Positions 40,453-60,549 of a DNA stretch of 64,000 nucleotides are shown here, one piece after another (positions within the stretch are counted from its first letter, which is position 1; every line of letters starts with the position of its first letter). A program made the position numbers and the translations under genes. The notes under the pieces are model-generated. The model ran no database searches. It was not told the origin of the DNA and saw nothing but the letters and a program-made list of their open reading frames with translations. The stretch is from assembly GCA_964036045.1 (NCBI GenBank), contig OZ038402.1:2309257-2373256 (forward strand), read 5' to 3'. The DNA is from Eutreptiella sp. 'Long Island Sound 2002' (Eukaryota; Euglenozoa; Euglenophyceae; Eutreptiales; Eutreptiaceae).

Positions 40453-41250
40453 CTGAATGGTGTGAATTAGGCAGTTGCCGCGAAGTCGAACCACTCCTCC
40501 ATGGATGGTGCTCCTCAACAGCGGCAAAGCCGCCTTGTCATCTTGCACCATCGAGGTGACCACAAGAATGCCAAAGAAAAACTGTGTGATGTTGCGGAAT
40601 GCAGTGTTTTGAAGGAGAGAGCATGGGGGGCACAAGCAAAACATTGCTCACAAATCCATGAAGCCGCAAACAACAGCAAGCGACTCCTCCTCCTCCTCCT
40701 ATCTAGTAAGGGAACACAGCCACCAGGACATCAAAAGAATACATTTGGAGGATGCATGTCTGCATGTCACAAACCCATTCCTGACCAAACACTTCGATCC
40801 ACAACTTTTCAACCAATAACTTGCTGAACCTCACTCTTCTCACTCATGTTACGGTAAATGGTCCACCGATTGTTGATCCATGGGGGCAAAAGGTGAAATT
40901 CTTGTAACGTGTGCCTCTTTGATTAACCTCTTCTTCCACATGGGGGACTAGGCCCCGAATCAGGTTTGTGGACCCCCCCCCCAATGGATCAGGTCACAGA
41001 TTGGACATGGCAGTGAACCCCCCCCCCTTGCCTATACTCCCAAAATGGATCAAAGCCCAAAAAATCGCCGAAACCACCGCGTTTACTACCATGGGAGCCC
41101 CAACGATCTCCCGCCAACCTTCCAATGCAGAGCCACATGCAAGATACAGGCACACAACAAAGCAAATACAAATTATTGACAATGCCCAATGCACAAAGAA
41201 GTTGCAACGGCATTTTGGACTTTTGATCGAAACAAGACATGGGGATGAAC
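40453..41250 (-). CDS. Exons of unrecognised membrane-protein-like gene
   Basis: Exon 40581-40453 (43 codons, phase 0 at both ends, acceptor ATCACACAG, donor CAG|GTGAGA) reads FFFGILVVTSMVQDDKAALP and then IHGGVVRLRGNCLIHTIQ. Upstream, around 41230-41020, a frame reads KCRCNFFVHWALSIICICFV and continues through a second hydrophobic stretch (VVNAVVSAIFWALIHFGSIG), resembling two membrane segments. A weak next exon may start at about 40249 (VCRVIAVACFVDHCLW). I do not recognise the family, and grouping these into one gene is a guess. Confidence 0.35.
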
Positions 41251-41817
41251 AAGGTGCAACGCTTCCTTTTCAATGTCCTATTCCCCAAGGTATGTTTACT
41301 GGGGAGATGGACCTTTGGCGATATGTTTATGTACCGAAAGCCCGCCATCTTGTTGATTGTGATACATGAAATAGTCAGGCATAGGCAAGCGATGAAAGGT
41401 GGCGCATGCGAGCAAGGAGAGGTAGGGGAACAATGAGAGGGTGATAGGCACATCATGATACCGTGGACTGCAGTGAACCCGGTGGCGTGAATTCTTTTGT
41501 ACACGGAAGCTAAACCATGGTAAATGAGCAAGCCATTGTATGTGCATATGCGACCTGAACAATGTTTGTCAATGCCCCACACTCATCCGTACTCTCGAAG
41601 CCGATGGCCGGCCACTACGGATTGTGCTTGCTCATGGGGTTTGGCTCCACAATCACTTCACCACGTCTAGCAACACGGGAACAACAACCCATCCAAACAA
41701 TGCCATTGCCCCCACTACCTCTGCATAGTAAACTGTGTTGCCATGGATTTACGAAATCCCCACTACGAAGAGAACACGCATGATGTGGTGGACAATAGCC
41801 CTAGTTACCGGAGGAGC

Positions 41818-42157
41818 ATAGTTGTCCTTTTCCTAGTTGCCTCAAACATGGACTTGAGTGAATGCAACGTAGGGGTGGTGTGTTGTGTGTCACTTGTCAC
41901 CGCATGGGGTAGTAGAAATTTCGTATTTGCACTTTCGTCACTTGCATCGACTGGTGGTGGTCCCTTTCCTCCGTCAATGCAAGGCACAACTATGGGGCTT
42001 AGCAAGCAAGCATTGGCACTAAAAACACTCAGCAGATGTATATGAGGTTGCAGAGGGTGCATGATGGGTCCAGGTGTGGTCCCTACAGTGACGCTTCAGT
42101 ACCCTGTGTCGCCGTCCCTTTGTATCCATATACTACATGTGTGAACCCATGGTGTTG
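41818..42157 (+). repeat. Direct repeat DR, left copy (5' part)
   Basis: This ~340-bp stretch is repeated at 62755-63094 with one visible base difference (T/C in CCCTTTGTATCC). The left copy is cut at 42157/42158 by the 16.2-kb element; its remaining ~50 bp resumes at 58378-58429. Confidence 0.9.
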
Positions 42158-42359
42158 CGTACCTGCGGCTCACTTGGAAATGTGAAGTTGGGGCTCAATT
42201 GGGGCTAAAACGGCTCATTTGGGGCTAAGTGGTGTTTTTCAAGGGGTTTAATGTGAAAAGTTGTGGCTTTCGGGGGTGGGTTGGGGTTTTGGAATGTCCC
42301 CAAAGGGACACCAATCCCTAGGCCAAGAGGATTTGACCGGGGGGGTTTCTTTTTTTCGA

Positions 42360-42492
42360 CGGCTCAGTTGACTGAGCGCCCCGACTGAGCCGTCACTGAG
42401 CCCTCACTGAGCTGGCTCACTGAGCGCTCAGTGAGCGCTCACTGAGCGCGCCAAATGGCTCGGTGAGCGCTCAGTGAGCGCTCACTGAGAGC
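42360..42492. repeat. Palindromic CACTGAGCGCTCAGTG cluster, left end
   Basis: Cluster of TGAGCGCTCA-type palindromes, including the perfect 16-bp palindrome CACTGAGCGCTCAGTG and spacer GCGCGCCAAATGGCTC. The same cluster is at 54535-54675, 56033-56072 and 58040-58165. Confidence 0.85.
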
Positions 42493-43386
42493 TAATTGGG
42501 GGCTCACTCAGGGCACACTCGGGAGTTTATCCCCCTTTCCGCCCTCTCTTCCCACCCTTGCTGGCCCACACTTCACCCTTTTCACACCAACATTGGTCCG
42601 CAGTTCTCACCACGTCTTTTCTCCAAGAACTTGAGCGTGCATGCACACATACATACTTGCATACATGTACCCGTGGCAACAAACACACAAACATCCAAAC
42701 ACACACACTTCGTCAGGGACACAAATATCCAAACACATACACACACATACACCATACACACGTCCACACACACATGCACATGCACAAATTGACAACCACA
42801 TTCATTCTTGTGTGCAATTATCTTGCGTGTACATAAACACATGGCCACATTGAACCATGTGAAGTGAAGGGCTAGGGAGAGATGGTTACGGGGTTGGGGT
42901 TCGGGGATATGAACCTAACCATTTGCGAGGGTGTTCCTTGTTGCCTCATGAAAATGGCACCCCCCCCCCATACACACACACACACACACCATGAAGCACA
43001 AATAGGGCACAAAGGACATTGCTCACTTTTGTGACGTTGATCATACAACCATCTTGACCTACACCATGACACGTTGATCCCCCTCCCTCCTTATCCCCTC
43101 CCCTCCCCTTTCGCTATGCTGTGTTCCCCCGCTTCCCTCGTGCGTAGCCCTTCTGTTCTCTTGCCTGTCCCGTCCCCTTTGTCCTACCTTTCCTATTTTT
43201 TGGCCATGGCATCACATGCATGATGGTGGCGGCAAGGACGATGACCTTTGCAGGTATGTTGTGCTATTATGTGTGTGGGTATGCGTGTGTGTGCTTGCAT
43301 GCGTGTGTAGTTGTGCCCATGCGCATGTGCGCAGCTGTAGATGGTTTGTTCGTTCTTGGTTTCTCTCATTTAGTGTGTTTGTATGT

Positions 43387-43485
43387 TGCACTGCAGCAGC
43401 CAATACCAACAGACAGGCACGACACCACAAATGGCTGGACCTCGGAAAAACTCCCATCGGTACAAAAGTGGCGTATGAACACCCC
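43387..43485 (-). repeat. Split direct repeat B2 (3' end)
   Basis: 99 bp, identical by eye to 43723-43821. It forms the 3' terminus of the retrotransposon and abuts host arm sequence ending GTATGT. Confidence 0.9.
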
Positions 43486-43607
43486 ACCAGGCCTGAATGG
43501 CTCTGGCGGATAATTATAGGCCTGAAGACCCAGGGCGACACAGCGGTCGCCCTGGCGAAACTGATGGCGTGAAAAAACAAAGGCGGAGCAAGTGGGTGGC
43601 GGCGGGC
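43486..43607 (-). other. Spacer between A2 and B2 with perfect hairpin
   Basis: 122-bp unique segment between the internal A2 repeat and terminal B2. It contains a perfect 10-bp stem, CCAGGGCGAC (43530-43539) with GTCGCCCTGG (43546-43555), and a 6-nt loop. Confidence 0.75.
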
Positions 43608-43722
43608 AACAAAAACAACAATGGGTAGCTCAGGCTACAATGGAGAAAGGGAAAAAACCCTTCACCTGAGCGTGAAGGAACAACAGAGGTGGGCGTGCAA
43701 GCTATAATAACCTATAAGCTGT
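43608..43722 (-). repeat. Split direct repeat A2 (internal)
   Basis: 115 bp, identical by eye to A1 at 52046-52160. It contains three short hairpins (GTAGC/GCTAC, GGG-A6-CCC and CTTCAC/GTGAAG). The junction with B1 (TGT at 43720-43722) reproduces the sequence of a joined circular intermediate. Confidence 0.9.
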
Positions 43723-43821
43723 TGCACTGCAGCAGCCAATACCAACAGACAGGCACGACACCACAAATGGCTGGACCTCGGAAAAACTCCCATCGGTACA
43801 AAAGTGGCGTATGAACACCCC
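43723..43821 (-). repeat. Split direct repeat B1 (internal)
   Basis: 99 bp, identical to the terminal B2 repeat. It follows the pol stop codon by about 90 bp. Confidence 0.9.
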
Positions 43822-43913
43822 CCGCACACATAAGCCAATGTTAAATAAAACTGCAACCAACCCCCAGGCACCCAGAGGTTCACAAACCCGGCCTGCCCAC
43901 AGGCGCCAGGCAC

Positions 43914-46900
43914 TCAGACGCACCACCAGGGGCGCGCCCTGGGCTGCAGAAACGGGTGAAAAAAGGCAGCCAACGGGGGAAATTGCATGTGAAAAACTTC
44001 CTTAACAATCTGCGGGCTGCCCAAGCGGGCAGCGCGCGATGGCGCGTCGGCAATGTTCTCCGGTCCCTCGACGTAAAATACAGCGGCATCAGGGCTGAAG
44101 GAGTACAGGGCCCTGAAAAAGGAATTCAGGTGGTAGGCCAGGGAGAACCCGCCCGTGGCGGAACCGGGCCGAAGCTGACCATGACACATGGCGCCGTGGT
44201 CAGTCACCACCGCAATCCGAGCGCCTCGCGGCAGGCGTCCCCGAAGCCACTCCACGATCTTGAGCCCCCCGATGGGCTCAGCCCACGCTGAGTGTCGCAG
44301 GTGACCATGCCAACCTCCCATGACCTCAAAGATGCGACCATCCGTAAAGCGGACATACGCCCCATACCCCGTGCCGCTGGCGTCCACGATGGCCACCGCC
44401 GCGTAGTCGTCGTCCACCAGAGATGGCAAGGGCGGGCAGTGCGGTACAACGGGCTGGTTGGCGGCCAAAACAGTGTACAGCGGGGTCAAGACGTCGAGGA
44501 CACGGGGCGTGACGGGGAGCTGCATATCCCAGCTACCGACCTGCTGGGCCACACGGGAGAACAAGCGGAGTACGTCCCAATGCTCCCTCAGCGAGACGTT
44601 GAGGGTGTTCGCCATCCACGAGCACAGCCCCACAAAGGAGGCCAGCTGACGTCGCGTCACCACAACCCGGGGGTCGTCGCAAGCATCCCGCATCCGAGCA
44701 AAGGCGGCCATCAGCTTGGCGACCTTGCGCGGCTGATTCCGTACCCGGCTGCCCACATACTCCTCCCCCAAGAAGGCGGCCGGCCCGGAGCCGAGCTGTG
44801 CGCCCAGGCGCAGAATATCGTCCGGATCGGAGGGCACGGGCACCTTGCGGCCCGCGACTTCGATGTCGTTCAGATCGGCGGAACACCGCTGTGCGCGCGT
44901 CAGGTAAAGCCGCACGGCCTCCACGAAACGGTCCGGCTCGTTGGAGCAGATGATGACGTTGTCGACCATGGAGGTAACGAACACCCCATCCATCCGTATG
45001 ATGGGCTCCATGAGCGCCCATGTGGTCGTGTTGGCGACCCCGCAAGACTGCGTGGCACCCATGGGGAGTCGCTCCAGACAAAATAGCTCATGTTCCGCAT
45101 TGTCCCACCGGATAGGCATGGCGGAGCGCACGACATGGTAGCTGCCCACGCCCAGTAGGGGAAACTGGTCGAACCAGGCGAAGTGGTCGAGCTCCAGCCG
45201 GTATGTGTAACCCGAAATGCAACGGCGGCGCTCGACGCGGGAGGGATAGGACAGCGGGGGAACCAGCGACTGCTGGAAGAAGGGATTGTAAAGAGTCTCA
45301 AAGACGGGGCGCCAGCGCCGCTTGGCAGGCTGGGGCACGGCGAACCCACGCACGCCGGAGCGAATCTCCTGACCCCCCAGGGGCCGTATTTTACCCACCT
45401 CCAGGAATCGGGTCCACTGCTCGTGGGTGAACTTGGAGACGGGTACTTGCGACGCGGTGAGGAGAGGGCGATCAGCAATCCCATAGCACCCGGCGCTCTG
45501 AAGCAGACTGACAGCCCCGTCAAAGGCTGCCCTGAGGTCATCAGACTCGATGGAGGCGCGCACTGCCGGCAAGTTGACGGTGGACACGGCATGGGCGTGG
45601 AGGGTCCAGTCCTTGAACGCATCCTGGGTCCCATCATAGTCATCCTGCAGTCCTAACTCAGATGACGGCGGCGCCTGTCGCGGGAACAGAGACGGTGGGG
45701 CCCGCACACGACGTCCACGCTCCCCGTTGAACCCCGACCAGCGCCCCATCTTCATCGGTGCGGCAACATCCCCGCCCATCGGGGTGACTGCCCGCGAGAG
45801 TTTGGTCGCCCTGGAGGCGGCCGCGCCCGCCGCTTCAGTGCTCTCATGCCCCCAGCCGAGGTAGCGGAGGAGGGTATCCCGGCGCTTGTGACCGGACAGC
45901 AACTGGAGCTCGGCGTCAGTGGCCCCGGCCCTAGCGTTGCAGACCAAGGCCCCACGGCGTATGCTGCGGCAGCTGTGATCGGGGAACCTGCCCAAGGCCA
46001 CCGACAGCTCACGCTGGGCAGTCTGGGAGAAGGCGTGATAGGGGGCGTCGCCCGGGTCCCGCTGCGGGGAAGTGCGCCGCGCCGCTTGCCGCCGCTCGTG
46101 GAAGAACGCCTTCAGCTGCTTGGCCACGGGGGCAGGCATAGTACTGTGAATGGTGTACGGCCCCCAAAAGAATGCACCTTTGCCCTCGGTGAACAGGGCC
46201 TCGACCGCGACGTTGCCATGTGCACCCGCGGCGTCCGCGATGCGCACGTTCTCCGGGTCGAGGCGGCGTGTGTCGCCGACGCGCGCTGCCAGGTGCCAAG
46301 CCAGTTGCAGTAGGTACCAGGCATCGCTCCCCCGGAGCTGGGACTCAAGCACATCAAAGTCGGCGTAGCTCAGAGGGGCTGACTTCTGCGGGCGCAGTGC
46401 GGTGACCCGTGCCTTGCGTGTGGCATGGGACGCCGCCCCGCGGAAATAGGGGTCCGTCCGAATGTCGATGACGGCCCCGTTGTAGGACGGAACGTAGTAC
46501 TGGAGGTCACGCAGGGCGGACGCCACCGTGGACAGCGAGGACGAAATGGTGCTCCAGGCCCAGTGGCGCTTCCTGGCCTCCCTCAGAACCATCTCGACCA
46601 CCGCCTTCGGTAGGGGCGTGTTGTTGAATTCGTCCGGCAGATGGCGGATACGGTGAATCCACCGTAGGTGGGACTGGCGTGTCTTCGGTGACATGCCGGA
46701 CCACACGAGGGGATGCACATGGCGAGGACACTCCAGCGCCTTGCCCAGCGGGTGCCACCGCTTGGCATCCAGGACCCTCCAGGTGCCCGCGGGGGCGCTG
46801 TCCATGGATGCGAGCGTAGCGCGCGCCGGATCGTCGAGCTGGTTGTGCAGGGCATCGACCTCGGATGGATCCGCGGCCTCGTCGCCGTAGTCGCTCCCCA

Positions 46901-49736
46901 CGTCGTCGTCGTCCTCATACCCACAGCTCGACGCGAACTCCGGGAGAGCCTGAACGCGGCCGAGGGTAAAGTAGGTGAAGTCAGGGTCCGGGAGTTGAAG
47001 GTAGGCCGGATCCTGAGACTCAAATTGACAGCACTTGTCGCACCAGCGCGCGAGGACCTCGGCCTCGCCCAGGGCCGACCGAGCAGGGGCCCGCAGAAGC
47101 CGCGCCACACACTGGACCCGATGGGCCCCACGGCGCGCCATGGAGAGGCGGATATGCGACCCCCGCGGCACGTCACGGAGCGCACGCTCCACTTCATTGT
47201 GACGCATGGCTGGCGCGCCTTCCCGCGGGGCGAAAAGCACCGTGTCGGCGGACGGTCCCGTAGGGCATGTGTCCCCCGTAGAAACCGCGTCCCACTGCGG
47301 CTCCCCCTCGGGATCGAGGACGCGGAGAACGGCGTGCCGCTGGGCCAAAGACGCATGGACCCAGCAGGTGTGTACCCCCGCGATTTCCAAGGCTGGTAGG
47401 CGGCAACCCCGGCGCATGGTAGTAGCGCACCCACAGCGTCGATCCGTTCCCTTAGTGGTCTCGAGAATGGCGGGGTGATGCCAGTGGCAGAAACCCCCGC
47501 ACACGTGATTGGGTGACCGGGGGTTCGAGCAGTCCCGGCATGTCCCGCGGGGCGCGACCCGAGCCGACCCGGGCCCAGGGGCGCCATCCCGGGGCGCGGC
47601 GGACAGCGTCGTACCCAGCGATGACGGTTCCGTCGCCGACGTCGGGGAGGTAGAGGCCCGCGCGTGAGTCGCTGCGGGCGGGGTCACCTCCCTGTGGGTG
47701 ACCGGGTCAGGGGAGGGGACAACCGTTCCTTGCCGAGTCCGCGTCACCTGCGACTGCTCCGCAGCGGACAGTGCAGGGGGAGGGCGACCAGGCCCCACCT
47801 CGGGCAGAGAAACCAGCCCAGGCGGACACGTCGCTTCCGCAGAAGGCACCGGCACGGAGGGGACGGACGGATCGGGTACAGGGGACAGCTCCCGCGTAGT
47901 CGGGGCACAAGACGGCAACACGGACCAACGGAAGCTCGGGCGATCCGCCGGCTCCACTCTTGCCCGCGAAAGCCCCAGATAGAAGTTGTGGGCCTCACGA
48001 ATGTGGGCCCTAGTCAGGGTCCCTGGCTCGGTGAGCGCGTAGATGGTCTGGAGGGTGTTATTCACGGCCTCGACCCCACACTCCGTCTCCTGCTGGCGTC
48101 GACAAGACGCGTACACAGCCTCGGGCTGAACGGGCAGGCCGCAGTGGCGACGGAGAAAGGAGGCGAAGACTCCAGCCCAGCGCAACGTGGCTTCGCCGTA
48201 GGCGGCCCCCCGAGCATCAAACCGCGCGCCCGTCGCGCCCGCCCCGTGCCAACTGTCCCGCACCACAATGGCCCCGCCCGCGTAGGCGAAGGCCACGAAG
48301 TGCTGCTCCGGTGCGATGTGCGCCACCGTAGCGACCTTGCTGGTAAGCGTGCCCGGGTCCCACCCGATGCCAGCGGGCAGGGTACAGCGTCCCTCCCACC
48401 AGGTGAGGGCCCTGCAGGGCAGATAACTCCATCCTGTAGCCGGTGGGTCACGAAAGACGGCGTCCAGGATTGGGGCATCCACGGCGGTGTCGGTTAAGTA
48501 CGTGTGCCGTTGAAAGGCACGGTAGGCCATGTGCAGCTTATCCTCCTGCGCGGCGGCTCGGGCCCTCACCGAGGCCACAATCTGGGTTGCACAGTCACGG
48601 AAAAGGCGGAGTAGAGGGCGGTCGGAGCGACAACCGCCTCGGGACGCCCAGAAAACCGAATCGGCGGTGGCCGAAGTGAGCCGGGCAAGGCTGACGGTCG
48701 CCTGCTCCCCCCCACCGGGATCGCAGTGATGGTAGAACTCGCGGACGAGGGCAACAGTCGCCCCGCTCAGGCCGGCGGACGCGGCCCTGGAGAGGAACCA
48801 CGACAGGGGCACGGGCGTCTGCACAACGAACTCCTCGGTCAAACTCGCCGGGTCGAAAGTGGCTGCCGCGGCCCGCTGAGCGTCGGCGTCGTGCGCCGAG
48901 CGCCGCGCGCGCGTGCGATGGGCCACAGGTGGAGCCTCCTCAGGTACGTCGAGGGAATAGCGCACCGGGCCGAGCCCCAAGGCCCCCTCAGGTCCGTCTG
49001 CAGGGGGCGACAGGGGAATCGCAGCGGACGTCGGGGCCCCACCGCGCACGACGTCGTCAAAGCCGATCATGGAGGCAAAGTCGGGACACGCGGCGGCGAG
49101 GAGCGCCGTGAGATGCTGAGTCAAGGGGCGGCACTCCGTCAACAGCGCCCGCCACGCGTGAAGGGAGACGTAGCGCGGGGGCGTCAACTGGGCCTGTGGT
49201 AAGGGCCTGGTGCCGTACGCGGCCCAGGCGCCCACGAAAAAGACATGGAGGCCGCACTCGGCGGACCCCCGGAACTGCTTGGCGTGCGCCACAATCACCG
49301 GCCGTGCGAGGCCGAGATCGCGCGTGAAATGGGAGGTGATGTCCCTGGCGGTGGCCGGATGCCGGGCGGAGTCGTAGACGACGGTGGTCAGGCGCCCAGC
49401 AACCCGGCGGACAACCGCCGTAGTCCAATGATACCGAACGTGCACTGGCATAATAGCACACGAGTGCCTCTCCAAAATCGAGAGGAGCCGCGCGACCAGG
49501 TCACGTGCCAGCCCCCGGCGGATCGACGGACGCTCCTCCGTCCGTACCCGGTAGAACAAAGCGGCGGGCACGTAGTTGGGGAAGGCGGGGGCCATCCGCA
49601 AATCCAAATCCATGTCACTCAACTCGGCATCGAGGGACCCGCCCCGTAGGTCGCCAGGGCGGAGCCTGCCGCACCCGGCCGAAGCTGGCCCCCTGTTTTG
49701 ATTCACGTCCTCTGGAGAGCCAAGAGGACCGCTCAA
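43914..49736 (-). CDS. pol: Pol: two Ulp1-like proteases, Cys/His region, tyrosine recombinase, RT, RNase H
   Basis: 1,940 codons with no ATG at the start; expression is expected by -1 frameshifting from gag. Domains (approximate residues): Ulp1/C48-like protease 1, H103, D122, Q154, C161 (AECGLHV); protease 2, H479, D494, Q548, C553 (ETECGVE); Cys/His-rich region 733-791, with another CxxCC at 899; tyrosine recombinase 1010-1300 with R1152, H1254-x-x-R1257, H1283 and Y1292, the complete catalytic set; reverse transcriptase about 1440-1640 (D1517 in [18 protein letters not shown], and VDN at 1591-1593 where VDD is usual); RNase H 1775-1905 with D1785, E1820, D1846 and D1897. Recombinase before RT resembles the VIPER order rather than DIRS. 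No aspartic protease is seen. Two Ulp1-like domains are unusual and pair with the ubiquitin in Gag. No internal stop: the copy looks intact. Confidence 0.9.
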
Positions 49737-49742
49737 AAACCC
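49707..49742 (-). promoter_or_regulatory. -1 ribosomal frameshift signal, gag to pol
   Basis: Read on the minus strand, gag ends ATG GGT TTT TGA. The heptamer G-GGT-TTT (49742-49736) fits the X-XXY-YYZ slippery rule. A 6-nt spacer follows, then a perfect 7-bp hairpin GTCCTCT (49729-49723) / AGAGGAC (49713-49707) with a 9-nt loop. Slipping back one base gives GGG TTT TTG AGC, which is exactly the pol frame. Confidence 0.85.
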
Positions 49743-52042
49743 ATCTGGGTCGAGGGATCGGTGGGCGCGCCATCGTCGGTCACGCCACGGGGCACAAGGG
49801 CGGTAGCGTCGTCCGCACTGCCACCAGCAGGACCCCCGCGAGGCTGGCGGCGCCGGGCCGGGAACTCAGGCGCTTGCCCAGGCTGTTGGTCCCGACGGGC
49901 CTTCCCGCTCCGATCGGTGGGCCCAGGTGGGCCACCGGGCTTGGGTTGCGGCACAGCTGCGGGTTTAGAGGCAAGCTGGACGGCCTTACGGAGTCCATCG
50001 ATCTCCGCACGTTGCTGCTTCACCTGGGCCTGCAGATTGGCAACAGCGTCACTAGCGGGGCCCATATCCACTGCATAGCGCCCCCTGGGGTCCGGCCCTT
50101 CAACGAAGAAATATGGCTCGCCACCCTGGACCGGCGGACGGACGGAGACCCGAAAGGACGCCCCCAAAGACACCGCGCGCTTGTAGGCCATGGGAAGCCG
50201 CATGCCGCCGCCGCCGCTGATGCGCCCCTCTGCACTGTCTGGAACATGGTCCAGAATATCCTGGTTCAACCGGACGAATTCCTCACAGACGGGCGGCAAG
50301 AGGGGAAAGGGACACGCAAGGATCTTCGGCAGGTTCCGAGCCTTGAACTGGGGATGTCGATCCTTGTGGTCCTCCTCCATCATTTCGGTAACTACGACGT
50401 TGTGGGCCCGAATGCGTGACGGCAGGTCCCTGTAGCGGAGCAGAATCGCGGCGTAGACCTGTGGGCTATCGGCCCAGACCAGGTGGGAGTAAAGGAGGAC
50501 GTCCTCGATGACCAACTCACCCTTCTCGGCCCACCATATGATCTGGGTCTTCGCCTCGTCGGCCGAGTAAGTATTGATGATCCCCCCCCGCCTGGGGTGC
50601 CCCGTGGGATAACGCGTATTGCCGTAGAGGTGCTCGAAGACCTCCATGTAAGCCTTCTTGTGCGCCGTGTCGAGATCCGCCTCCCTCTCGAGGCGTCGTC
50701 GCTCATCGGCCGTGCGCTGGCGTTCCTCCTCACGGCGCTCGCTCTCCAACTCGAACTGCCTTTCGAGGGCCCGTGCCAGCTCCAAAGTGGACCGGCCCGA
50801 AGCGGGGTTGTCCAGGCCGGCCTCTCTGAGATCGTACTGCCGCGCCAGCGTCTCGATGCGCTTGTTCTTGAACTCCTCGCTCCCGGGCCCGGCACGGATG
50901 GCTGCAGCGGCCGCGTCAACCGCGGGGTCCTGCCCCAACGTGGACCAGTCATTGAGCACGCCACCACGCAGCCGCAGGACCAAGTCCAGCGTGGACTCCC
51001 TCTGAACGTTGTAGTCGGCGAGAGTACGGCGGGCCTCCAACTGTTTGCCCGCATACAGCAACCTCTGCGAACCAGGGGGAACGCGCACCTTGGCCTGGAC
51101 CCGCAGCATCACGGTCGCCACTGAGTCGGCGGACCTGACATCCAGGGTCACCGTCGTCCCAGACAAAGTCGTCACGAAGATCTGCATACGGGCCCCAGGC
51201 GAACGCGTACTGAGAGAGTCCTGCTCGGAGTCCGCAGGCCCCCAGTGGTCCGTACCATCCGCCATATTGGGCCTGTCCACCAGCGTACTGCAGCCAGGCC
51301 CCCAGTGGTCCGTACCCTCCGTTATATTGGACCGGCCCATCAAAGTACTGCAGCCAGGCCCCCAGTGGTCCGTACCCTCCGTTATATTGGACCGGCCCAT
51401 CGAAGTACTGCAGCCAGGCCCCCAGTGGCCCGTACCCTCCGTGATATTGGACCTGCCCACCGAAGTACAGCAGCCAGACCCCCAGAGGCCCGTACTCTCC
51501 ACTGAAGTAACGCAGCAGGTCGTGGAGGACACACGCGGCACACAGCACCACAGCCGGCAGCCCTCGACAGCCAAAAGGCCAGAGGGCCGCCCAGCTCTGG
51601 CCCCAGGAGCCGATGCGCTGCACCCCCTGTCACTGTAGTCGGACAACGTGCACGCAGCGGTCGTCAGGACCAACAATTTCTGGTCCACCCGGTACCGCGG
51701 CGTGGTCAGCATCATGGGCTGGATGGTCTGCAGCATGTGGTAGATGGTCTGCAGCACTCTCTGCATCAGGACCCAGGTGTCGTCCGCCATACTGTGCAGT
51801 ACCCAGACAGCCTGCTGGCTCAGTGTCAGGCCGAAAGCCGGCGGCGCCAAAGACTGGAGTCCGTGCCGCGAGGCCCCGCAGTTGCTGGCCCCCCCATCGG
51901 TGGTCGAGACCGGGGCCAGCGTGTTGTTGCTGTCGATGTACACCAGGCCCAGTAGTGGGCAGCGGAGCGCCGCGCGTATGGCGAAGGGGTCGACGTCACG
52001 GAGCTCCATCCGGTCCTGCGGGGCAATCGTGCTCCGGAACAT
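49733..52042 (-). CDS. gag: Gag-like protein with an embedded ubiquitin
   Basis: 769 codons from the ATG at 52042, 3 nt after repeat A1. Residues 1-140 are unrecognised ([20 protein letters not shown]). Residues 180-270 come from a 60-bp tandem repeat. Residues 286-361 are a complete ubiquitin ([10 protein letters not shown] to LRLRGG). Next comes a helical, charged region ([20 protein letters not shown]), then a conserved-looking Gag-like core ([33 protein letters not shown]) and a basic Pro/Arg/Gly-rich tail. No zinc knuckle is visible. The ubiquitin Met (51187) could instead be the true start: all three minus frames are open across 51190-51620. Cleavage after Gly-Gly would release a product beginning VLNDW. 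Calling it Gag rests on position and composition. Confidence 0.8.
50960..51187 (-). other. Ubiquitin domain within gag
   Basis: 76 codons beginning MQIFV and ending LRLRGG, aligned without gaps to canonical ubiquitin; 46 of 76 positions agree in my manual alignment. AGKQLE, TLADYN and ESTL are kept. Of the seven standard lysines only K33 and K48 remain; positions 6, 11, 27, 29 and 63 are T, T, M, R and R. I44 is Leu and H68 is Asp. The processing end (R72, R74, G75, G76) is intact. Confidence 0.95.
51235..51510. repeat. 60-bp tandem repeat, 4.5 copies
   Basis: Units begin CCCAGTGGTCCGTACC at 51241, 51301, 51361 and 51421, with a partial unit at 51481. As 60 is divisible by three, all frames stay open. 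In the gag frame the unit reads [19 protein letters not shown]; in another frame it reads a Gly/Tyr-rich [20 protein letters not shown]. Confidence 0.9.
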
Positions 52043-52045
52043 CAA

Positions 52046-52160
52046 AACAAAAACAACAATGGGTAGCTCAGGCTACAATGGAGAAAGGGAAAAAACCCTT
52101 CACCTGAGCGTGAAGGAACAACAGAGGTGGGCGTGCAAGCTATAATAACCTATAAGCTGT
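52046..52160 (-). repeat. Split direct repeat A1 (5' end)
   Basis: 115 bp forming the 5' terminus of the retrotransposon, identical to 43608-43722 and directly followed by the gag start. Any promoter must lie here or be supplied by A2. An AT-rich stretch (TATAATAACCTATAAG on the plus strand) is present. Confidence 0.9.
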
Positions 52161-52752
52161 CTGCTTGTGTGTGTGTGGGGGGGGGGGGGCTTGCTTGGAT
52201 CGATGTGTGAGTGAAGGTGGCTTTGTGCGTGAGTGGTTGTGAGTGTGTGACTGCGTTCTTTGGTTTCTCGTTGCCTAGGTTCGTGCGTGTATGTGGATTC
52301 GTGAATGTGTGTACGCGCAGGTGTGTGTGTGTGTGTGTGTGTGTTGCAGCTGTTGTTTTGGATGTTGTTGTTGGTTTTGGTGTTGTGTGGCATAGGCTTT
52401 GATTGTGTGCGCATAACATTGTGTTTGTGGCTGCAGACGCAGGTATGTTTGTGTTTGTGGTTGTAGCTGTGGTTCTGGGCTTGCGTACGGTTGTTGCCAT
52501 GGCTGTTGTGGTAGCTGTCGTTCTTGGTGTGGTTATGGTAGTGGCTGTGGTTGCGGCTTTGCTTGTGGGTGTGGGTGTGGGTGTGGGTGTGGGTGTGGGT
52601 GTGGGTGTGGGTGTGGGTGTGGGTGTGGGTGTGTTTCTGCAAGCTGTGTTGTGTGTGGATTTGGTTGTGGTTGTGTCAGTGTGTGTGGCCCTGGCTGTGG
52701 CGAAGGCTGCAGTTGCAGCTTTCACTGTGGCCGCAGCTGTTCGTTGGGTTCA

Positions 52753-54069
52753 GGCTGTAGCTGTGGGTTGGGTTGGGTTGGGTGAAGGCCTCACCTGGTC
52801 GCCTACCCGCGGTCCGCGCCGCCTTCCCTGCCGGACCCGACCGGGCGGCTGTACCAGGGTGTCCGGTCACAAGGCCTACCGGACTGCTGACCGCCCCCAG
52901 ACCCCGCGGTGGCGCTCGCGGGCGGGAGATGCCGCCGTGCCTGTGTGTATGTGCCCTTGTGTGTTTGTGGAGGGGGGGGGGGGCTGTGGCACACCTGCTT
53001 GCTCCATTGTTGTTCGGCGTTGGCGCACATGGTGCGGGGAAGTGTGTGCCTGGTGCTCCAGGCCCCGGCAGGGAGGCTGGAGAGCCTGACTCTGAGCCCG
53101 CCGGGGGAGATGTGGGCCTGGGCTCGCAACCTCCACGTCACTAGGACATGCTACCCAACCACTCCACGACTGCCTGTTGGCACGGGAAGGCGGTGGTACG
53201 TGGCACGACTGGGGTCAGACCCGCACTCCTTGACTGCCTTAGGCACAGGTGGTGCTGCCACGCGGGCTGGGTCCGGCTCCCCACGGCCGAGGGCGTACCG
53301 CGGGCAGGTGGAGGGGCACCAGGGCGCAAAGAGTGCTTCCCTGCCCTGGGTGCCACCGGTGCTGGCTGCACTGGCTGCGGCGCTACAGCCCGCGTAGACG
53401 AGGGGGCCCAGAGGGCACCACACCCGAATGGCCTCTCCGTTGAGGAAGGGGGGGGGGGGGCAGGGGTCGGCAGGTGGCTGTCTGGCCTCCAGGGGTCGCC
53501 CGCAACTGCACTGGAGTGCACGGGGCTGTGCTGGCCTAGGCGTCTGTGATGAAGTTGGAGGGGCACGCGCACACCTGGAGGTTCCCTGTGCAGGTCGCTC
53601 AAGGGATACCCACAGCGGTCAAGCTGTGAGCCCTTCACAGCCTCCACTTTTTAGGCCCTGAGGGCGCCGACTCCGTGCACCCCTCCCGTCGGGGGCGCAG
53701 GCTGGGGGGGGGGGGGGGGTTAGTGGTGGATGGGTCTACCTGCTCACTTGTTTGGGAGAGGAGGACCACCTGCTGGGTTACCATGCGGGTCCCAGATCCC
53801 AACATACTCGTCGTTCGGCGTCCGCTCCCTGTCCGTGAGGGGTGGGACCTCGATCACCATGTGACGGCCTGCAGTGAGGGTGCGAGGGCATGCTGGGGGG
53901 GGGGGGGTGCTGGGCCTGCTTTCGGTCCGGCCCCATTTCTGTTGGGGGGGGTAGGGGCAGCAAAAGGTCTGCTCCCCTATTTCCTGGTCCCCAAGGGGAA
54001 CCAGCCCACGGCCTGCACCCTCGCTTTATGGTGGCTGAAATTTGGGCCGACTGGGGCTGTAGCTGTGGG
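52753..54069 (-). mobile_element. 1.3-kb retroposon-like insert with 15-bp target duplication
   Basis: GGCTGTAGCTGTGGG occurs at 52753-52767 and 54055-54069 flanking 1.29 kb absent from the matching right arm, where this 15-mer occurs once. Read on the minus strand, the insert ends in a (CCCAA)3-type tail before the duplication, as for target-primed retroposition. It is GC-rich with several G runs. The longest minus frame (about 53647-53141) is Pro/Arg-rich and unrecognised. Confidence 0.7.
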
Positions 54070-54129
54070 GGGGGGGGGGGGTAAAGGACTGCAAAGAGGG
54101 GGGCTCAAATCACCATCCACCCCCTCCCA

Positions 54130-54535
54130 AAAAAGACCGCACCAAGTTTACAGACAGTGTACAGTGACAGTGTACAATGACAGTGTATAGTGAGAGCATA
54201 CAGTGAGTGTAGAGTGACAGTGTAGAGTGCTAGTATAGAGACTTGGGCGTCGTGGCGGACGTACTGTGTGTGGGGATACATTCTATGAGACCTTGGGGAG
54301 TACAGTGTACAGTGTACAGTGTACAGTGTACAGTGTACAGTGTACAGTGTACAGTGACAATGTACAGTGACAGTGTATAGTGACAGTGTGCAGTGGCAGT
54401 GTGCAGTGTGCAGTGACAGCGTACAGTGCCAGAATACAGTGTACCATGTACAGTGACAGTAGACAGTGACACCATTGACAGTGTACATGGACAGTGTGCA
54501 GTGACAGTGTACAGTGACAGTGAACCATGAGTGAG
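54130..54535. repeat. ACAGTGTACAGTG-type satellite, left inner arm
   Basis: Short degenerate repeats of ACAGTGTACAGTG and ACAGTGACAGTG, the inverted counterpart of 56070-56450. These lie at the inner ends of the two arms. Confidence 0.8.
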
Positions 54536-56072: not shown

Positions 56073-58375
56073 GTTCACTGTCACTGTACACTGTCACTGT
56101 ACACTGTCACTGTACACTGTCCATGTACACTGTCAATGGTGTCACTGTCTACTGTCACTGTACATGGTACACTGTATTCTGGCACTGTACGCTGTCACTG
56201 CACACTGCACACTGCCACTGCACACTGTCACTATACACTATCACTGTACATTGTCACTGTACACTGTACACTGTACACTGTACTCCCCAAGGTCTCATAG
56301 AATGCATCCCCACACACAGTACGTCCGCCACGACGCCCAAGTCTCTATACTAGCACTCTACACTGTCACTCTACACTCACTGTATGCTCTCACTATACAC
56401 TGTCATTGTACACTGTCACTGTACACTATCACTGTAAACTTGGTGCGGTCTTTTTTGGGAGGGGGTGGATGGTGATTTGAGCCCCCCTCTTTGTAGTCCT
56501 TTACCCCGCCCCCCCCCCCCCACAGCTACAGCCAGAACCCAAAGAACAGCTGCAGCCACAGTGAAAGCTGCAACTGCAGCCTTCGCCACAGCCAGGGCCA
56601 CACACACTGACACAACCACAACCAAACCCACACACAACACAGCTTGCAGACACACACCCACACCCACACCCACACCCACACCCACACCCACACCCACACC
56701 CACACCCACACCCACACCCACACCCACACCCACAAGCAAAGCCGCAACCACAGCCACTACCATAACCACACCAAGAACGACAGCTACCACAACAGCCATG
56801 GCAACGACCTCACGCAAGCCCAGAACCACAGCTACAACCACAAACACAAACATACCTGCGTCTGCAGCCACAAACACAATGTTATGCGCACACAATCAAA
56901 GCCTATGCCACACAACACCAAAACCAACAACAGGATCCAAAACAACAGCTGCAAAAGCTGCAACACACAGACACACACACACACGTTGGCACACACACAC
57001 ACACACCTGCGCGTACACACATTCACGAATCCACGTACGCACACAAACCTAGACAACCGGAAACCAAAGAATGCAGTCACACACTCACAGTGACGCACAA
57101 GGACACCTTCACCCTTGCATCGATCCAAGCAAGCCCCCCCCCCCGACTCCCACACAAACATACATACAAACACACTAAATGAGAGAAACCAAGAACGAAC
57201 AAACCATCCACACTTGCGCACATGCGCATGGGCACAAGCACACACCCGCGAACACACACACTAGCACAACATACCTGCAAAGGTCATTGTCATTGCCGCC
57301 ACCATCATGCACTCGATGCCATGGCCAGCAAATAGGGAAGGCATGGCAAGGGCAGGGCAAGGGGACGCGACAGGCAAGATAAGAGAAGGGGTTGGCATGG
57401 GGTAAGCGGAGGGATCAGGCATGGCAAAAGGGGACGGGAGGGGATAAGGAGGGAGGGAAATGAGTGTGTCATGGTGTAGGTCACGATGGTTGTATGATCA
57501 ACCTCACAAAAGCGAGCAATATCCTCTTTGCCCTATTTGTGCTTCATGGCGCGCGCGCCCGTGTGTGTGGGGGGGGGGGGGGGGTGCCATTGTCATGAGG
57601 CAACAAGGAACACCCTCGCAAATGGTTAGGTTCATATCCCCGAACCCCAACCCCGTAACCATCTCTCCCTAGCCCTTCACTTCACATGGTTCAATGTGGC
57701 CATGTGTTTATGTACACGCAAGATAATTGCACACAAGAATGAATGTGGTTGTCAATTTGTGCATGTGCATGTGTGTGTGGACGTGTGTATGGTGTATGTG
57801 TGTGTATGTGTTTGGATATTTGTGTCCCTGACGAAGTGTGTGTGTTTGGATGTTTGTGTGTTTGTCGCCACGGGTACATGTATGCAAGTATGTATGTGTG
57901 CATGCACGCTCAAGTTCTTGGAGAAAAGACGTGGTGAGAACTGCGGACCAATGTTGGTGTGAAAAGGGTGAAGTGTGGGCCAGCAAGGGTGGGAAGAGAG
58001 GGCGGAAAGGGGGATAAACTCCCGAGTGTGCCCTGAGTGAGCCCCCAATTAGCTCTCAGTGAGCGCTCACTGAGCGCTCACCGAGCCATTTGGCGCGCTC
58101 AGTGAGCGCTCACTGAGCGCTCAGTGAGCGCTCAGTGAGCCGGCTCAGTGACGGCTCAGTCGGGCGCTCAGTCAACTGAGCCGTCGCCAAAAAAAGTACC
58201 CCCCACCTTGAACCTCGACCAAGTGAGTATCTAAAACTTCTAAAAACATTAAGTGCACACTACCTAGCATGCAAAACGCACAACAAACAAGCACAAAGAC
58301 ATCGCAATGGACAACTGAGCCCCAAATGAGCCCCAACTTCACATTTCCACTTAGCCACCAGTGAGCCGCAGGTAC
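56035..58375. repeat. Right arm of the 16.2-kb palindromic element
   Basis: Inverted counterpart of the left arm without its two insertions. It includes (CCCACA)n at 56650-56735 (left counterpart (GTGGGT)n at 52560-52632), a near-identical block 57680-58060 matching 42490-42870, a palindrome cluster at 58040-58165 and the terminal GTAC inverted repeat. Identity is high in most blocks but visibly lower around 57330-57460. Confidence 0.8.
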
Positions 58376-58772: not shown

Positions 58773-60134
58773 TCATTCATGATGGTCCGCAAAACATTCG
58801 ACGTGTAGATAGCACCCACATGCTTTGCACTTGTATCGAGTGGTGCCCATCCCACAATGTACACAAGCGCCCCGCTTCCCAACCACTATTGGTACATGCT
58901 TGTCCACCACCTCAATTTGCCTTGCCGGAAAAATGTATCTCATCAACCTCCATTGCCAGTCAAACATTGTTTCACCCCCCGGACTAAGGCGCAACGCTTG
59001 GCATGACGTAAATGCATTTGTTGCCGCTATCCTTAACACCATCCCCCCAAGTGCCTTCCACCATGATTGAAAACGGTGCTCTTCCCGGTGTAGTAAGCAC
59101 ATTTGGTTAAACGTATCCACCCCCGGGGCAAACCTACGGTAGTTGGCAATTATCCCCGGTAGGTGGTATCGTCCACTTCGGTGTGGGAGCGAACCTCCGG
59201 TCAAGCAATTGGTTAGTAGTGGTACCACCTTTGCCGGCTTGCGCCCCACTTTGGGGTTTTTGTATACCGAGAGTGCATACCCATGTTCCTTGTGTACCAC
59301 CGTGTTCACATCCCCCGGGTCTAATCCAACGTTCCCATCTTGCACCAAAGCACTTGTGGAAGTGAGCATCAAGAACGGACGCTCTTGTGCACTTAGCATC
59401 GCCGCCGCATCATGAGACCCAAAGAATGAGTCCGCCACAAGCACCTTTCCGGGTGGAGTCACATCATTCCAAAGTTGCACGATCTCAAAAGCATTGTAGT
59501 GGCCTGCAAACCGGCTCCGGGACTCTGGACCCACACGAGGGGCTGCACCACGGTACAAATACACATGCCAAATGTAATGGCTTTGTGCGTCGCACACCGC
59601 GTACAGTTTCACACCGGTGCTGTGAGGCTTGCGCGGTATGAACTGGCGGATTACAAATAACCCCTTGTGGGGGACCACGGTCTCATCCCCGCACACCACG
59701 TCACCTAGTTCCCATCCGCCTTGCCAGTGCATCGTGCACAACTCAATCAACGCATCTGCATCCGGGTCCGCAAGTCGCTGCAGCACATAAAACTGTCGCC
59801 TGCTAGGAAACAGTTCCGCCATGCATGCATTGTAGTGCATACTCTCTTTGTCCCACACATCATCTATTCTGCGCGGCTGCATCATGCCCAAGCCAACTCG
59901 AAACAGCACGTACTGCGGAAGAAGGTCCACTAGGTCTACCCGGTTGGCCTCTTCCAAACACAGCGTCATGGCCTCCAAAATTGGCTGGAACATGAAGTTC
60001 CAGACGGCAACGGGGGTCTTGCCATCCTCGGTGCCCTCCAGGAGGCTGCGCCCTTTGCGGAGTTCGTCTCCAAAATCCCATCGGGCCTCTAGGGGGGCCA
60101 GGGGTCTTGGTTCCCATGGTGGAGCAGCAGGCAT
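58773..60134 (-). CDS. piggyBac-like transposase (DDE_Tnp_1_7 type)
   Basis: 453 codons from the ATG at 60134, which follows a good 3' splice site (TTTTTTTTCAG). The exon may therefore continue from upstream exons. DDD residues are visible: D150 (DETVVPHKG), D235 (VADSFFGS) and D340 (APGVDTFNQM). KPHSTGVKLYAV and the C-terminal Cys/His cluster (CVHCG, CKACGCYLHVEC, HH) fit the family. These enzymes cut and paste DNA at inverted repeats. The known moth piggyBac protein is 594 residues, so this N-terminus is short; the missing part could be in the gene at 60550-62221. No internal stop or frameshift: the catalytic domain looks intact. Confidence 0.85.
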   Translation of the reverse strand: MPAAPPWEPRPLAPLEARWDFGDELRKGRSLLEGTEDGKTPVAVWNFMFQPILEAMTLCLEEANRVDLVDLLPQYVLFRVGLGMMQPRRIDDVWDKESMHYNACMAELFPSRRQFYVLQRLADPDADALIELCTMHWQGGWELGDVVCGDETVVPHKGLFVIRQFIPRKPHSTGVKLYAVCDAQSHYIWHVYLYRGAAPRVGPESRSRFAGHYNAFEIVQLWNDVTPPGKVLVADSFFGSHDAAAMLSAQERPFLMLTSTSALVQDGNVGLDPGDVNTVVHKEHGYALSVYKNPKVGRKPAKVVPLLTNCLTGGSLPHRSGRYHLPGIIANYRRFAPGVDTFNQMCLLHREEHRFQSWWKALGGMVLRIAATNAFTSCQALRLSPGGETMFDWQWRLMRYIFPARQIEVVDKHVPIVVGKRGACVHCGMGTTRYKCKACGCYLHVECFADHHE

Positions 60135-60549
60135 GCCTGAAAAAAAAACAGAATACAAGCTTTTGCTGACCAGTCTTGGCAAACTACCCTAAACCGTTCA
60201 GACCGCTTCACTTTAGATCACTTTATCCACAGACCGGTCGGACCGGTCTTTGCAAACTACTCTAAACCGTTCGGACCGCTCCACTTTAGCTCACTTTGTC
60301 CACAGACCGGTCGGACCGGTCTTTGCAAACTACTCTAAACCGTTCGGACCGCTCCACTTTAGTACACTTTAGACTTTCTTTGAGTTAGCTACTACTTTCT
60401 GCTCCCAAACCGAGTTAGGTGCACCCGCCAAACCAAACACGCAGCAGAAATCATGGAATCATGCAATCCTGGAATCATGTCGCTGGTGTCCCATCAAGCA
60501 CATGCACAGACACCGTGGGAAACGCCGCAGCGAACTCGCCACTGGCATT

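What the first reader, a model, noticed from the sequence alone, without database searches (positions are those of the whole stretch)
49733..52160. Ubiquitin built into the Gag of a tyrosine-recombinase retrotransposon whose Pol carries Ulp1-like proteases
The sequence shows a gap-free 76-residue ubiquitin with an intact LRLRGG end inside gag, and two Ulp1-like cysteine protease domains in the pol of the same element. Ulp1/C48 enzymes are known to cut after the Gly-Gly of ubiquitin-like proteins, and no aspartic protease is present. I infer that ubiquitin serves as a cleavage site or maturation tag in the polyprotein and that the element supplies its own processing enzyme. I do not know of this arrangement in a DIRS/Ngaro/VIPER element.
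Basis: partly seen in the sequence, partly recalled or inferred. Interest (0 to 1): 0.95.

Follow-up and report, generated by a model that had tools for sequence, protein, structure and literature searches.

The report
Retrotransposon Gag carrying built-in ubiquitin
A jumping gene, probably of a single-celled eukaryote, carries its own copy of ubiquitin inside its coat protein and its own ubiquitin-protease-like enzymes, which suggests that it matures its proteins by cutting after paired glycines, as some viruses do.

Summary
Window 43384-52160 (minus strand) is a full-length tyrosine-recombinase retrotransposon with identical A1-ORFs-B1A2-B2 repeats and an empty site elsewhere in the window. 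Its Gag contains a gap-free 76-residue ubiquitin (50960-51187, PF00240 9.4e-20, LRLRGG end) directly before the Gag body. Pol carries two domains of predicted Ulp1/CE-clan fold with His-Asp-Gln-Cys, then recombinase, RT and RNase H. Ubiquitin is no one-off: 5 of 7 Gag hits have it, including a lineage 59% identical; two lack it. The first protease-like domain is wider than ubiquitin: catalytic residues are invariant in 16 of 16 aligned Pols and present in a Leishmania TATE-like protein. Three related Pols carry a USP deubiquitinase domain. Gly-Gly or Ala-Gly precedes the protease (14 of 14 that cover it) and recurs in the variable recombinase/RT linker (20 of 20 read). Best reading: the polyprotein matures by adenovirus-protease-like di-glycine cuts, and ubiquitin was captured as a ready-made cleavable unit. 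Cleavage is inferred; whether the element's enzyme or a host deubiquitinase cuts ubiquitin is open. The source genome could not be searched.

The parts
43384..52160 (-). whole retrotransposon, 8777 bp, A1-ORFs-B1A2-B2
   Evidence: split direct repeats; ACA at both ends and at the B1/A2 junction; paralogue at 56495-57744 aligns across the joined flanks
52046..52160 (-). A1 repeat (115 bp)
   Evidence: 100% identical to A2
43720..43821 (-). B1 repeat (102 bp)
   Evidence: 100% identical to B2
43608..43722 (-). A2 repeat, overlaps B1 by ACA
43384..43485 (-). B2 repeat
49733..52042 (-). ORF1: leader-ubiquitin-Gag, 769 aa
51188..52042 (-). leader upstream of ubiquitin (285 aa), ends in a 60-bp tandem repeat
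   Evidence: codon-usage signal in the Gag frame for its first 150 aa, not for the repeat part; open in relatives P0003, P0004, P0009
51235..51534 (-). 60-bp tandem repeat inside the leader
50960..51187 (-). ubiquitin, 76 residues, LRLRGG end
   Evidence: PF00240 9.4e-20; 46/76 identical to human
49736..50959 (-). Gag body, begins VLNDW right after LRLRGG
   Evidence: aligned with ubiquitin-less Gags P0007/P0008, which begin 14-19 residues before this point
49820..49825 (-). Gly-Gly in the variable Gag tail (PAGG|SA), candidate cut site
   Evidence: GG in 7 of 8 Gags; the eighth, P0009, lacks the tail
49736..49742 (-). candidate -1 frameshift site G GGT TTT just before the Gag stop TGA; a short hairpin follows at 49707-49729
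   Evidence: sequence and frames; folding of the 68-nt stretch is no better than shuffles, z -0.60
43914..49736 (-). Pol ORF (1940 codons) in the -1 frame of Gag
49638..49643 (-). Gly-Gly before protease-like domain 1 (LRGG|SLD), candidate cut site
   Evidence: GG in 12 of 14, AG in 2 of 14 sequences that cover it, tallied by eye; lies in the model's low-confidence tail 1-34
49122..49637 (-). Ulp1/CE-clan protease-like domain 1 (H103, D122, Q154, C161)
47922..48548 (-). Ulp1-like protease domain 2 (H479, D494, Q548/Q549, C553)
47457..47540 (-). Cys/His-rich zinc-finger-like motif
   Evidence: pattern read
45837..46739 (-). tyrosine recombinase (HxxR, GHK, catalytic-type Tyr 1292)
   Evidence: alignment; weak PF00589 in 3 of 9 members, best 0.024
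45771..45776 (-). Gly-Gly in the recombinase/RT linker (PMGG|D), candidate cut site
   Evidence: GG, GAG or TAG in 20 of 20 linkers read
44637..45449 (-). reverse transcriptase
   Evidence: RVT_1 matched in 7 of 9 Pols at E up to 1, best 4.5e-10; window Pol 0.042
44022..44414 (-). RNase H-like region
   Evidence: conserved acidic pattern, read by eye in the alignment
56495..57744 (+). paralogous segment with the empty insertion site

Best explanation
This is a full-length, recently inserted TATE/VIPER-like tyrosine-recombinase retrotransposon. Its Gag is made as leader-ubiquitin-Gag, and Pol probably follows by a -1 frameshift. The ubiquitin is a vertically kept processing cassette: a cut after LRLRGG releases a Gag body that begins with Val, a stabilising N-terminal residue (N-end rule of yeast, recalled). 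In place of an aspartic protease, Pol brings CE-clan (Ulp1-like) cysteine protease domains that most likely cut Gly-Gly|X or Gly-X|Gly sites in the Gag tail, before the protease itself and between recombinase and RT, as adenovirus protease does in its virus; some relatives add a USP deubiquitinase. Shown: the sequence anatomy, the conservation of ubiquitin, of catalytic residues and of the glycine sites, and a predicted fold. Inferred: that cleavage happens, which enzyme does it, and that the frameshift works.
For: Ubiquitin in 5 of 7 Gag hits, in two lineages 59% identical over the Gag region searched. In 6 of 6 ubiquitins read, length is gap-free and LRGG is kept; LRLRGG in 5 of 6. Residues 1-70 of P0001 and P0005 share only 33/70, the tail 6/6, and the leader 64/269 in a gappy alignment. 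None of the seven classical lysines is kept in both lineages. Ubiquitin-less Gags P0007/P0008 start 14-19 residues before the cut point. P0005/P0006 carry a second, free-standing LVLRLRGG|D in the leader. H-D-Q-C of domain 1 invariant in 16 of 16. Fold: domain 1 nearest XopD-ubiquitin, also NopD-ubiquitin, RickCE, OtDUB, SseL, pox I7L, ASFV pS273R; domain 2 nearest Ulp1, SENP5, NEDP1. Linker: GG 13 of 20 against 3.1 expected on shuffling; [MILV]xGG or [MILV]xGxG 12 of 20 against 1.0, in lineages mostly near 40% identity with at least five changes of site type on the tree. In nine aligned Pols only three GG positions are shared by five or more, two of them the borders named. Adenovirus protease motifs (M/I/L)XGX-G and (M/I/L)XGG-X, and PLpro LXGG identical to the ubiquitin end: PMC7464072, passages. 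USP in P0023, P0026, P0028 with Cys and His boxes.
Against: No cleavage was observed. The residue after ubiquitin is Val, whereas the other sites favour Asp/Glu/Ser, so that junction may be cut by host enzymes. Two of the window's own candidate sites, PAGG|S and PMGG|D, do not have M/I/L at P4; nor do the linkers of P0011, P0012, P0016 and P0029. Conserved glycines can be structural: the third shared GG of Pol lies inside RNase H, and the Gag body has further shared GG positions inside conserved sequence (RRGG|I in 8 of 8, VxGG|E in 7 of 8, a GGG stretch), so GG alone proves nothing. The site before domain 1 may belong to the domain's edge. Ubiquitin-less relatives show it is dispensable. P0004 has LQLRGG. 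Shuffle tests ignore relatedness. Profile E-values for Ulp1 homology are marginal. No selection test on DNA was possible.
Confidence: 0.55

Rival explanations
1. Host deubiquitinases alone cut the ubiquitin off during translation, and ubiquitin works as a folding and expression partner of Gag, as in ubiquitin-ribosomal protein fusions. The Pol proteases do other jobs.
For: The ubiquitin end and the residues L8, R42 and V70 are kept (sequences; their role in deubiquitinase contact is recalled). Val after ubiquitin differs from the mostly acidic or small residues at the other sites. The first Ulp1-like domain occurs in relatives far outside the ubiquitin-bearing Gags.
Against: A long leader precedes ubiquitin, unlike host fusions. 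In P0005/P0006 Met1 is replaced by Trp, and an extra LRLRGG without a ubiquitin domain stands in the leader, which host deubiquitinases would not be expected to use (inference).
Confidence: 0.3
2. The protease and USP domains act on ubiquitin or SUMO of element or host proteins (counter-defence or repair), and the conserved glycines are flexible hinges.
For: Ulp1, OTU and related deubiquitinase domains occur in DNA transposons and Helitrons, where roles in repair or in sparing transposition proteins from degradation were proposed (PMC2836005 passages; PMC9741609 passages). Domain 2 is closest in fold to SUMO/NEDD8 proteases.
Against: Glycine pairs recur at two borders in otherwise unconserved sequence, with swaps between GG and GAG, as expected of protease sites. 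Viral enzymes often do both jobs (PMC7464072, PMC9741609), so both readings can hold.
Confidence: 0.25
3. Ubiquitin stays attached and recruits host machinery (ESCRT or proteasome) to Gag.
For: Ubiquitin on Gag matters for ESCRT-driven retroviral budding (titles and abstracts in the listing only).
Against: An uncleaved domain would not need its LRGG end, which is kept in 6 of 6; I44 is Leu and H68 is Asp in the window copy.
Confidence: 0.1
4. Artefact: chance insertion of a host ubiquitin gene, or misassembly.
For: None found.
Against: Ubiquitin is only 46/76 identical to human and is present in a lineage 59% identical in Gag; repeats are identical and an empty site exists.
Confidence: 0.02

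Closest known systems
TATE and VIPER retrotransposons of kinetoplastids (PMC6681497; passages and one section read)
   Same: Gag-like, recombinase and RT/RNase H; A1-B1A2B2 split direct repeats. A Leishmania braziliensis TATE-like protein (P0031) aligns over recombinase (30%, 8e-32) and over the Ulp1-like domain (26%, 4e-6)
   Different: 'protease' and 'ubiquitin' do not occur in that paper's main text; the N-terminal region of the TATE recombinase protein was given only a low-significance SPOR label; P0031 shows one Ulp1-like motif and no ubiquitin
Ngaro elements (PMC8547959; passages read)
   Same: Split direct repeats A1-[ORFs]-B1A2B2, tyrosine recombinase
   Different: Ngaro order is RT-RNase H, then recombinase; 'ubiquitin' does not occur in that paper
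Adenovirus protease and coronavirus PLpro polyprotein maturation (PMC7464072; passages read)
   Same: Cysteine proteases that cut XGG-X / XGX-G or LXGG sites and also act on ubiquitin-like proteins
   Different: Viruses of other genome types; ubiquitin is not a part of the polyprotein (recalled)
Cytopathogenic pestiviruses with inserted host ubiquitin (recalled; only a search listing with abstracts seen)
   Same: Ubiquitin inside a polyprotein provides a cut site
   Different: Recent host captures, cut by host enzymes (recalled); here ubiquitin is diverged and shared by two lineages
Transposons with Ulp1, OTU or other deubiquitinase domains: Ginger1, Mutator, oomycete Cryptons, Helitrons (PMC2836005, PMC3212892, PMC9741609; passages read)
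   Same: Transposon-borne Ulp1 or deubiquitinase domains
   Different: DNA transposons; no ubiquitin-Gag; the roles proposed there are not polyprotein processing

Membership tests
TATE/VIPER-like tyrosine-recombinase retrotransposon | order Gag - recombinase - RT/RNase H | tested here: met
TATE/VIPER-like tyrosine-recombinase retrotransposon | A1 at 5' end, B1-A2-B2 at 3' end | tested here: met
   pattern described in PMC6681497
TATE/VIPER-like tyrosine-recombinase retrotransposon | recombinase groups with TATE/VIPER in a tree with DIRS, PAT and Ngaro | not tested
   only pairwise similarity to a Leishmania protein; no reference set was fetched
TATE/VIPER-like tyrosine-recombinase retrotransposon | host is a kinetoplastid or other euglenozoan | tested here: inconclusive
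   host of the window unknown; named relatives come from EukProt PhM_4 (a euglenozoan as I recall) and Leishmania
Ngaro | RT-RNase H upstream of recombinase | tested here: not met
   recombinase lies upstream of RT
DIRS1-like | inverted terminal repeats (recalled) | tested here: not met
   no inverted pair in 41000-54200 at minimum length 40 and seed 14
Ulp1/C48 (CE-clan) proteases | catalytic His-Asp-Gln-Cys | tested here: met
   invariant in 16 of 16 for domain 1; motif for domain 2
Ulp1/C48 (CE-clan) proteases | fold | tested here: met
Ulp1/C48 (CE-clan) proteases | Pfam PF02902 above its cut-off | tested here: not met
   not seen in the window Pol; below cut-off in the relatives whose scores were shown
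ubiquitin | 76-residue domain ending LRLRGG | tested here: met
   pLDDT 73-89 over this part of an otherwise poor model
ubiquitin | conjugated to other proteins | not testable with these tools
   only K33 and K48 remain in the window copy
adenovirus-protease-like maturation | sites of type [MIL]XGG-X or [MIL]XGX-G at domain borders | tested here: inconclusive
   widened to [MILV], met in 12 of 20 linkers by script; in the window met by LRGG|S and LRLRGG|V but not by PAGG|S and PMGG|D
adenovirus-protease-like maturation | cleavage at those sites | not testable with these tools
   needs biochemistry

The most novel reading that the evidence does not exclude
A lineage of tyrosine-recombinase retrotransposons uses, in place of the aspartic protease of other retroelements, a di-glycine maturation system: a CE-clan protease, sometimes joined by a USP deubiquitinase, cuts GG|X and G-X|G borders of Gag-Pol, and one lineage domesticated ubiquitin itself as a modular cleavage cassette inside Gag, so that one element encodes both ubiquitin and its protease.
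Probability: 0.4. Interest if true: 0.92.

Novelty: new variant of a known kind. Interest (0 to 1): 0.82.

Why it matters
How DIRS, Ngaro, VIPER and TATE elements mature their proteins was not explained in the passages read here; PMC12440569 says that the retropepsin domain is not found in DIRS. The finding offers a concrete, testable answer for one branch, extends virus-style di-glycine processing to cellular retrotransposons, shows a retroelement that owns ubiquitin and carries ubiquitin-protease-type enzymes, and points to a Ulp1-like domain in a Leishmania TATE-like protein that PMC6681497 does not name.

Tried and rejected
Own-genome search for copies and ubiquitin genes: 19 calls with the same request did not complete, so copy number, dN/dS and host ubiquitin are untested. 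Viral-contig scans with P0007, A2 and P0023 gave no relative; the genome-contig scan gave one locus, L001, of 71 stretches. The ubiquitin-Gag model is poor outside ubiquitin (mean pLDDT 44) and was not used for a fold search; the PDB profile search with Gag showed only ubiquitin-type matches in the 60 listed of 423, so a capsid fold of Gag is untested. No Rfam family at gathering score and no tRNA in the window. The hairpin after the frameshift site is not better than shuffles. Host identity from ten other ORFs: no clear host gene, only a piggyBac-type transposase and weak hits. Considered and rejected: ubiquitin as recent host insertion; DIRS1 or Ngaro membership.

Rows dropped. Of 23 Pol-type proteins (P0002, P0010-P0031) the linker count used 20: P0010 duplicates P0002, and P0024 and P0031 showed no recombinase Tyr motif to my pattern (P0031 ends after the recombinase, P0024 was not looked into). 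In one search the pattern cut P0014's linker short; its VRGAG was read by eye, so GG-or-GAG is 17 of 20 by script and 18 by eye, and the script's [GA]G for P0014 was counted at a wrong place. P0021 has both GAG and GG and is counted under GG. The site before domain 1 was tallied by eye on 14 of 24 sequences (23 Pols plus L001); the other 10 (P0010, P0011, P0012, P0019, P0020, P0021, P0024, P0025, P0027, P0028) start downstream of it or, in the case of P0010, are a copy.

Full report
What is there. On the minus strand of the window lies one element of 8777 bp (43384-52160). Two repeats, A (115 bp) and B (102 bp), occur as A1 at the 5' end and B1-A2-B2 at the 3' end, each pair 100% identical. 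B1 and A2 overlap by the triplet ACA, and ACA stands at both ends of the element. A paralogous segment elsewhere in the window (56495-57744, 87% and 85% identical to the two flanks) aligns across the joined flanks and shows the empty site, with ACA at the expected place in a CA-rich stretch. The element is therefore a real insertion; no target-site duplication is visible, as expected for a tyrosine recombinase, and identical repeats suggest a recent event.

Gag. ORF1 encodes 769 aa: a leader of 285 aa, a 76-residue ubiquitin and a Gag body. Ubiquitin matches PF00240 over its whole length at 9.4e-20, is 46/76 identical to human ubiquitin without gaps, and ends in LRLRGG-V. The first 150 residues of the leader have codon usage like Gag and Pol in this frame (0.14 bits per codon; the best of 300 control stretches, which were longer, reached -0.11); the part with the 60-bp repeats does not (-0.13 in this frame, about 0 in another). 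Gag stops at TGA directly after G GGT TTT, a possible -1 slippery site, and the Pol frame is open through that point; the RNA fold downstream is unremarkable (z -0.60), so frameshifting is inferred.

Relatives of Gag. A search with the Gag body found 7 proteins among 7995 scored candidates; 5 carry ubiquitin and 2 do not. P0003, P0004 and P0009 are close; P0005/P0006 (near copies of each other) are 59% identical and also carry it, with Trp in place of Met1, so there ubiquitin cannot start translation. Between P0001 and P0005, ubiquitin residues 1-70 share 33/70, the tail 6/6 and the Gag body 166/240, while the leader shares 64/269 in a gappy alignment. All six ubiquitins read keep LRGG and the exact length; five keep LRLRGG and P0004 has LQLRGG. 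Lysines are mostly lost: K33 and K48 remain in the window copy, K6 and K27 in P0005. P0005/P0006 also have a free-standing LVLRLRGG-D in the leader. The ubiquitin-less P0007/P0008 Gags begin 14-19 residues before the point that follows LRLRGG in the others; they lie on contigs of about 2.2 kb whose DNA I could not read. With three groups and no root, gain in one line and loss in another cannot be told apart.

Glycine sites. In the nine-Pol alignment only three GG positions are shared by at least five sequences: before domain 1, in the recombinase/RT linker, and one inside RNase H. Before domain 1, 12 of 14 sequences that cover it have GG and 2 have AG (by eye). In the linker, 13 of 20 have GG, 5 more GAG and 2 TAG (by eye; GG or GAG 17 of 20 by script because one linker was cut short). 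Shuffling each linker gives 3.1 expected for GG (P about 4e-8), and 1.0 expected against 12 observed for [MILV]xGG or [MILV]xGxG (P about 1e-12). Relatedness makes these P values too small, but most Pol pairs are only about 40% identical, and the tree needs at least five changes between site types; 9 of its 17 inner branches are unresolved. The Gag tail has GG-S or GG-D in 7 of 8 Gags, the eighth being truncated; the Gag body also has shared GG inside conserved sequence, which is no evidence of cutting. The sites resemble the adenovirus protease motifs (M/I/L)XGX-G and (M/I/L)XGG-X and the PLpro motif LXGG, which equals the ubiquitin end (PMC7464072, passages read). Of the window's four candidate sites, LRLRGG-V and LRGG-S fit this strictly; PAGG-S and PMGG-D lack M/I/L at P4. 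PMC9741609 notes that viral deubiquitinases often process polyproteins at di-glycine sites (passages read).

Mechanism. I think it most likely that the element matures its polyprotein by cutting after Gly-Gly or before Gly with its own CE-clan protease, and that ubiquitin was captured before the two ubiquitin-bearing lineages parted, as a folded unit with a perfect Gly-Gly end that frees the Gag body from the leader. Shown: anatomy, conservation, predicted fold. Inferred: cleavage, enzyme, frameshift. Against a single enzyme for all sites: the residue after ubiquitin is Val in both lineages, elsewhere mostly acidic or small. A host deubiquitinase could cut ubiquitin while Pol cuts the rest.

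Place among known elements. Order of domains and repeats fit TATE/VIPER (PMC6681497, passages and one section read), not the Ngaro order (PMC8547959, passages) nor DIRS1 inverted repeats. A Leishmania braziliensis protein (P0031) has an N-terminal part in the Gag position, WGG-D, a Ulp1-like domain with HW, Q and DCG, and recombinase; that it is TATE is my inference from host and similarity. 'Protease' and 'ubiquitin' do not occur in the main text of PMC6681497. Searches of an open-access library listed no report of ubiquitin in a Gag or of Ulp1 in these elements; several of those lists were capped (for example 15 of 206, 12 of 127), most subscription papers are not held, and the reviews by Poulter and colleagues cited in the papers were not seen.

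Limits. The host is unknown, its genome could not be searched, no DNA of relatives except L001 was available, and no experiment was possible.

Noticed in passing
window 44958-44969 (Pol 1590-1593) and P0011-P0018: The RT motif C reads M(V/I/L)DN: Asp1592 is followed by an invariant Asn1593 in all nine aligned Pols instead of the usual second Asp.
   Followed up: no
P0031 (Leishmania braziliensis, 1356 aa): A TATE-like protein carries a Ulp1-like motif set between its N-terminal part and the recombinase, not named in the passages of PMC6681497 read.
   Followed up: partly
P0023, P0026, P0028: Related Pols carry USP deubiquitinase domains with recognisable Cys and His boxes.
   Followed up: partly
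window 51235-51534: 60-bp tandem repeat in the leader; the number of repeats differs among relatives, and another frame reads a tidy Gly/Tyr/Trp repeat.
   Followed up: partly
window 52162-52791 and 56495-57160: Inverted segmental duplication (87%) on both sides of a low-complexity stretch; one copy holds the element.
   Followed up: partly
window 58773-60182: piggyBac-type transposase ORF (PF13843, 5.1e-20) on the minus strand.
   Followed up: no
L001 (NVUB02000040.1): Contig filed in a bacterial MAG (Ectothiorhodospiraceae) that encodes a relative of this element, probably eukaryotic contamination.
   Followed up: partly
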